A stretch of DNA of 64,000 nucleotides, from contig JAOACD010000012.1 of the NCBI GenBank assembly GCA_026417975.1, positions 1 through 64,000 of the forward strand, in the 5' to 3' direction. The notes below the pieces were generated by a model. It was not told the origin of the DNA and ran no database searches. It saw only the letters and a list, made by a program, of their open reading frames with translations. Below, piece by piece: positions 1-531 of this stretch. The first letter of the stretch is position 1, and every line of letters starts with the position of its first letter. Origin of the DNA: Melioribacter sp. (GTDB taxonomy: Bacteria > Bacteroidota > Ignavibacteria > Ignavibacteriales > Melioribacteraceae). The position numbers and the translations under genes were made by a program.

Positions 1-60
1 GGAATAATCCTTATTGTGAAATGCTTTCTATTTGTTCTTGATAAATTTAACTAATAATAA
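1..60 (-). ncRNA. Type II-C-like tracrRNA, partial (anti-repeat plus start of nexus; continues past the left window edge)
   Basis: Minus strand reads ...aagaacaaatagaaagcatttcacaataaggattattcc. Positions 13-39 complement the 5' end of the repeat at 142-187 (18 bp contiguous, 2 mismatches, then 5 more plus a wobble), followed by an AAGGATTATTCC hairpin like the nexus of Bacteroidota tracrRNAs. Exact 5' end unknown. Confidence 0.75.
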
Positions 61-77
61 ACAAAAATCAAATATCT

Positions 78-158
78 ATGAAAAAAATACTTGGCTTAGA
101 CTTAGGTACCAACTCAATTGGTTGGGCATTAATCGAAGAAGCTGGTTTTAATATCTAA
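78..158 (+). pseudogene. cas9: cas9 5' remnant (RuvC-I motif only; 26-aa ORF MKKILGLDLGTNSIGWALIEEAGFNI*)
   Basis: MKKILGLDLGTNSIGWALIEE is the characteristic Cas9 N-terminus/RuvC-I motif. The ORF stops after 26 codons, and the last 5 codons come from the CRISPR repeat. Confidence 0.85.
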
Positions 159-187
159 AAAGAACAAATAGAAAGCAAATCACAACT
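142..187 (-). CRISPR. Single CRISPR repeat, type II-C Bacteroidota-like (GTTGTGATTTGCTTTCTATTTGTTCTTTTTAGATATTAAAACCAGC)
   Basis: 46 nt, starts GTTGTGATTTGCTTTC like known long II-C repeats, complementary to the anti-repeat at 13-39. No second copy or spacer in the window. Confidence 0.75.
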
Positions 188-531
188 ATATCCAAATATT
201 AATCTCAAATGTTTTTGAAAATGAATAAATTATTAGTTTATATTCGCAAGTTAGACTATAAACCTATCTGTATTCTCAAGAAAAGATTGAGGTAAAAAAT
301 TATTATTTTAATTCAAAAATTATGAAAATATTGCACATCACAACTTTCATATCGTGATTGATACTAACACATTTATTAAAAAATGCTAATGTTTATTACC
401 TAACCAAATAATTCTGGAACCATTTTTAGGTGAAAATTGTAAACAACCCCCTGATGATATGTTTTTTAAAGAGAGCACTAGAGGGTAACATCATAAAAGG
501 TATCTTTTCTAGAAATTTTATGAGTAAAAAG

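What the first reader, a model, noticed from the sequence alone, without database searches (positions are those of the whole stretch)
1..190. CRISPR-Cas9 scar: tracrRNA edge, 21-codon cas9 stub and a single CRISPR repeat fused together
Seen directly: an anti-repeat (13-39, minus-strand transcript), a Cas9 RuvC-I N-terminus (78-140) and one 46-nt repeat (142-187) lie within 190 bp. The cas9 frame runs straight into the repeat at its GCTGG boundary and stops 5 codons later. Inference: one deletion or recombination removed the rest of cas9, the adaptation genes and the array, joining cas9 codon ~21 to the 3' end of the (probably leader-proximal) repeat. A breakpoint exactly at a repeat boundary is unusual and might reflect spacer-integration-like or repeat-mediated chemistry. 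An assembly artefact or a subpopulation variant must be excluded.
Basis: partly seen in the sequence, partly recalled or inferred. Interest (0 to 1): 0.8.

Follow-up and report, generated by a model that had tools for sequence, protein, structure and literature searches.

The report
Deletion scar of a CRISPR-Cas9 locus
A bacterium of the Melioribacteraceae has lost almost all of a CRISPR-Cas9 immune system, leaving its tracrRNA gene, the first 21 codons of cas9 and one repeat; close relatives show similar independent losses, so this is gene decay and not a new mechanism, and the join lies at a branch point of the assembly where an uncut version may coexist.

Summary
Window 13-39 is a tracrRNA anti-repeat, 78-140 is cas9 codons 1-21, and 141-186 (not 142-187) is one 46-nt type II-C repeat. 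The rest of the tracrRNA and its terminator lie on another contig of the same genome, C12, which overlaps the window start by exactly 141 bp. Eight contig-end pairs overlap by exactly 141 bp, so the assembler used k=141, and this overlap ends at the very base where cas9 meets the repeat. The junction is therefore an edge of the assembly graph at a branch, which suggests an alternative allele in the sample. No other cas9, no cas1 and no array with this repeat was found in the 79% complete genome. Relatives in the family show independent losses: one keeps tracrRNA, about 104 cas9 codons, exactly one 30-nt spacer and one repeat; a same-genus species keeps tracrRNA and 27 nt of the repeat. Best reading: a recent illegitimate deletion from early cas9 to the cas-distal, oldest repeat. 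The 'leader-proximal' guess is contradicted, because in these loci the leader end is next to cas2. Integrase-like chemistry is not needed. Interest is modest.

The parts
1..141 (.). Assembly overlap: identical to the end of contig C12 of the same genome; length exactly k=141; last base coincides with the cas9/repeat junction
13..39 (-). tracrRNA anti-repeat; the remaining tracrRNA with hairpin and terminator (GCCCTCGTCCTTTAACGGGGGCTTTTTT) lies on contig C12 just upstream
   Evidence: the sequence CACAACGGAATAATCCTTATTGTGA is kept in intact loci of the family
78..140 (+). cas9 codons 1-21 (RuvC-I N-terminus)
   Evidence: aligned with intact cas9 genes of G098, G043, G139, G012
141..158 (+). Run-on of the cas9 frame into the repeat: AGFNI then stop
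141..186 (-). Single 46-nt type II-C CRISPR repeat, inferred to be the cas-distal (oldest, 'extra') repeat

Best explanation
The window begins in the relic of a type II-C locus with the original order tracrRNA (minus strand), cas9, cas1, cas2, array (repeats antisense to cas9). One illegitimate deletion joined cas9 at codon 21/22 to the terminal, cas-distal repeat and removed the rest of cas9, the adaptation genes and all spacers. It was probably guided by a few bases of chance homology (GCTG at cas9 codons 22-23 and at the repeat end; inferred from an orthologue, not seen in this species). The relic is recent and has no immune function: there is no Cas9 to use the tracrRNA. The loss is one of several independent losses in the family. 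The junction is an edge at a branch of the assembly graph, so an uncut or differently cut allele probably coexists in the sampled population. Shown: the parts, their order, the 141-bp contig overlap, and the relatives' scars. Inferred: deletion mechanism, recency, coexisting allele.
For: C12 supplies the rest of the tracrRNA and its terminator next to a radical SAM gene; the same gene and tracrRNA sit together in G001, same genus. No cas9 beyond the stub, no cas1 and no second copy of the repeat in the genome. G006: tracrRNA, cas9 stub of about 104 codons, one 30-nt spacer and one repeat, inside an 83.6-kb contig, no other cas9. G001: tracrRNA, no cas9, 27-nt repeat fragment identical to window 142-168, inside a 307-kb contig. 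Of 26 genomes of the order with the tracrRNA core, 22 have a cas9 frame following it and 4 do not. The radical SAM gene differs from G001 at 73 of 134 four-fold sites (61 identical) while the tracrRNA is nearly unchanged, so both tracrRNAs were constrained until recently. The overlap is exactly k and ends at the junction.
Against: No reads were available, and the scar sits at a contig start. The microhomology at this junction rests on a relative's sequence; if the branching partner is the intact parent, base 142 must differ from C there and the shared sequence would shrink to the single G at 141. The genome is 79% complete, so an intact cas9 elsewhere is not excluded.
Confidence: 0.8

Rival explanations
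1. Assembly artefact: chimeric reads or graph simplification joined the cas9 start of an intact locus to the outer repeat of its own array.
For: The junction coincides exactly with the end of a k=141 contig overlap, and CRISPR arrays are hard for short-read assemblers.
Against: Contig C15 runs unbroken through the repeat into its downstream flank, whereas a competing spacer-bearing path should have broken it there as well. Cas9 and the repeat share only a few bases at the junction, too little to fuse at any usual k. An equivalent scar lies inside a long contig in G006.
Confidence: 0.13
2. Integrase-type event: Cas1-Cas2 joined a broken cas9 end to the repeat end, or a half-finished integration was resolved by deletion, which would explain breakpoints exactly at repeat ends.
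For: Both scars have a breakpoint at a repeat end: the 3' end here, and the 5' end in G006, where exactly 30 nt of spacer remain. Repeat ends are the known integration sites (established knowledge).
Against: Only two cases, noticed afterwards. In G006 five shared bases (ACAAC) explain the join, and microhomology makes a join look exact. The kept repeat is at the end of the array where type II-C does not integrate. 120 truncated Cas9 N-terminal proteins gave no further repeat-fused tails.
Confidence: 0.04
3. The join made one transcript with repeat and anti-repeat, a natural single-guide RNA that has been kept for use with a Cas9 supplied in trans.
For: The minus strand from about 215 into C12 folds with the repeat paired to the anti-repeat, then the tracrRNA hairpin and terminator, -75.3 kcal/mol.
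Against: No Cas9 found in the genome; the pairing is a necessary result of the join; G001 lost the repeat's 5' end, which would pair with the anti-repeat; no conservation of the arrangement within the genus.
Confidence: 0.02

Closest known systems
Type II-C CRISPR-Cas loci of Melioribacteraceae and other Bacteroidota (e.g. Melioribacter roseus, G009; G043, G098, G058)
   Same: tracrRNA core, cas9 start, 46-nt repeat in antisense orientation, order tracrRNA-cas9-cas1-array
   Different: here all but 21 codons of cas9, cas1/cas2, and all spacers and repeats but one are gone
Degenerate II-C remnants in relatives G006 and G001
   Same: complete tracrRNA with terminator kept, cas9 lost or cut short, repeat material kept at the far end
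   Different: G006 keeps about 104 codons and a spacer; G001 keeps no cas9 and has an unrelated reading frame between tracrRNA and repeat fragment
II-C extra repeat and extraneous crRNA (Feussner et al. 2025, PMC12080349)
   Same: the kept repeat is the oldest repeat at the transcription-upstream end of the array
   Different: here it is the only repeat and there is no Cas9

Membership tests
Type II-C CRISPR-Cas locus | tracrRNA with anti-repeat, hairpin and terminator upstream of cas9 | tested here: met
   the anti-repeat is in the window, the rest on C12
Type II-C CRISPR-Cas locus | full-length cas9 with RuvC and HNH domains | tested here: not met
   only codons 1-21; genome 79% complete
Type II-C CRISPR-Cas locus | cas1 (and cas2) downstream of cas9 | tested here: not met
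   no Cas1 hit in the genome; cas2 not searched
Type II-C CRISPR-Cas locus | array of at least two repeats antisense to cas9 | tested here: not met
   one repeat only, in the expected orientation
Degenerate CRISPR-Cas remnant (deletion scar) | parts of the locus in native order with the middle missing, and related intact loci | tested here: met
Degenerate CRISPR-Cas remnant (deletion scar) | junction supported by reads | not testable with these tools
   only the assembly overlap is available

The most novel reading that the evidence does not exclude
Type II-C loci are lost by a preferred route in which one end of the deletion falls at a repeat terminus, a Cas1-Cas2 target site, so the immune system's own integrase excises it and leaves tracrRNA, cas9 start and outer repeat; here the cut and uncut forms are caught together in one population.
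Probability: 0.05. Interest if true: 0.6.

Novelty: new member of a known kind. Interest (0 to 1): 0.28.

Why it matters
It gives a clean example of how a Cas9 system is lost: recent, by one short join, repeated independently in related lineages, while two of the relatives keep Cas1 genes that probably belong to other systems. If the uncut allele coexists in the same sample, the loss is caught while still polymorphic. It is also a caution that contig ends can carry junctions that belong to a graph branch.

Tried and rejected
The permease gene downstream of the scar was tested for synteny: in G001 it lies far from the remnant, so only the upstream flank is shared. IMG/VR scans for the repeat and the cas9 start found nothing. 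A search for truncated Cas9 N-terminal proteins found 581, of which 120 were read; none showed a repeat-derived tail by the motifs used. Rfam gave only sub-threshold hits on the tracrRNA. Unrelated RuvC-like protein rejected: the stub scores best as Cas9 and has a tracrRNA beside it.

Full report
What is there. A 25-nt stretch of the repeat occurs at 13-37 on the plus strand with three mismatches and at 162-186 on the minus strand exactly, against none in 100 shuffles. Bases 78-155 encode MKKILGLDLGTNSIGWALIEE followed by AGFNI and a stop; the peptide matches the Cas9 model at E=1.5e-6 and other RuvC-fold models only at 0.035 or worse. By comparison with the 46-nt repeats of relatives, the repeat is 141-186.

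What lies upstream. The window is contig C15:1-64000 of a 2.02-Mb, 17-contig genome, 79% complete. Its first 141 bases are identical to the end of contig C12, and the overlap is exactly 141. Eight pairs of contig ends in this genome overlap by exactly 141. That is the overlap left by a de Bruijn assembler at k=141, the default largest k of MEGAHIT (established knowledge). C12 carries the missing tracrRNA part, its terminator, and a radical SAM gene (the gene name is from its sequence, no family search was run on it). So C12 and C15 are neighbours in the graph, and the graph branches at the shared 141-mer.

What the branch implies. The shared 141-mer ends at base 141, the first base of the repeat, or equally the last base shared with cas9. 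If the branch were caused by variation upstream of the tracrRNA, this coincidence would be accidental. If it is caused by a second continuation of cas9, the coincidence is expected. I infer that another allele, probably with an uninterrupted cas9, is present in the sample. C15 itself is not broken at the repeat, so the scar is probably the main path into the downstream flank. Reads would settle this; none were available.

Relatives. The family is Melioribacteraceae: one member, G009, is a single contig of 3,300,414 bp, the published size of the Melioribacter roseus chromosome (PMC3534657). A 20-nt tracrRNA core occurs in 26 of 167 genomes of the order; 22 have a cas9 frame following it and 4 do not. 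In a phylum-wide sample, all 18 further genomes with the core have a cas9 start behind it. The four without are this genome, G006, G001 and G040, the last with only the core left. G006 has the tracrRNA and terminator, a cas9 stub of about 104 codons, exactly 30 nt of spacer and one 46-nt repeat, inside an 83.6-kb contig. G001, of the same genus, has the same radical SAM gene and tracrRNA, no cas9, an unrelated reading frame, and a 27-nt repeat fragment identical to window 142-168. G001 and G006 still have Cas1 genes elsewhere; no Cas1 was found in this genome.

Timing. The radical SAM proteins of this genome and G001 are 88.5% identical but agree at only 61 of 134 four-fold sites, whereas the tracrRNAs are nearly identical. 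The tracrRNA was therefore under constraint for most of the time since the split, and the losses are recent and separate; the junctions also differ. An alternative, that an orphan tracrRNA is kept for another role, is not excluded but has no further support.

Which repeat is kept. In intact relatives the repeats are antisense to cas9, the array lies beyond cas1, and degenerate repeats sit at the cas-distal end. [quoted passage not shown] The kept repeat is followed directly by the downstream flank, so it is the oldest repeat, not the leader-proximal one.

How the join arose. In G006 the cas9 sequence and the repeat end share ACAAC at the join, and the orthologues G098 and G139 carry ACAAC at that place. 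For this genome the orthologue G043 reads GAAGCTGAA where the scar reads GAAGCTGG, so a GCTG microhomology is plausible but not seen in this species. If the branching partner is the intact parent, base 142 of that parent is not C and the shared part is smaller. Either way a short illegitimate join is the simplest account. Two of two scars ending at repeat termini is suggestive of integrase involvement but is post hoc; a search for more cases among truncated Cas9 proteins gave none.

Function. None is likely. The minus strand could give one RNA in which the repeat pairs with the anti-repeat, followed by the tracrRNA hairpin and terminator, but no Cas9 was found to use it.

Verdict. A real, recent and ordinary kind of loss, with an assembly caveat. 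The interesting remainder is whether cut and uncut alleles coexist.

Noticed in passing
L154 (Leeuwenhoekiella palythoae DSM 19859): cas9 frame stops after about 380 codons although the tracrRNA is intact; the frame seems shifted.
   Followed up: partly
L144 (Fibrobacter intestinalis ATCC 43854), from 2053: Complete-looking tracrRNA with no cas9 start in the following 1.7 kb; a possible further orphan tracrRNA.
   Followed up: no
L291 (G282): Two cas9 starts behind one tracrRNA core: a decayed 20-codon start at +79 and an open one at +282.
   Followed up: no
L023:52-189: The tracrRNA region gives a weak, sub-threshold Rfam match to Bacteroides sRNA BTnc231 (29.3 bits, threshold 80.4) that scores better than the match to the tracrRNA family.
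   Followed up: no
window 724-1853: Three small reading frames next to the scar with no Pfam match.
   Followed up: partly
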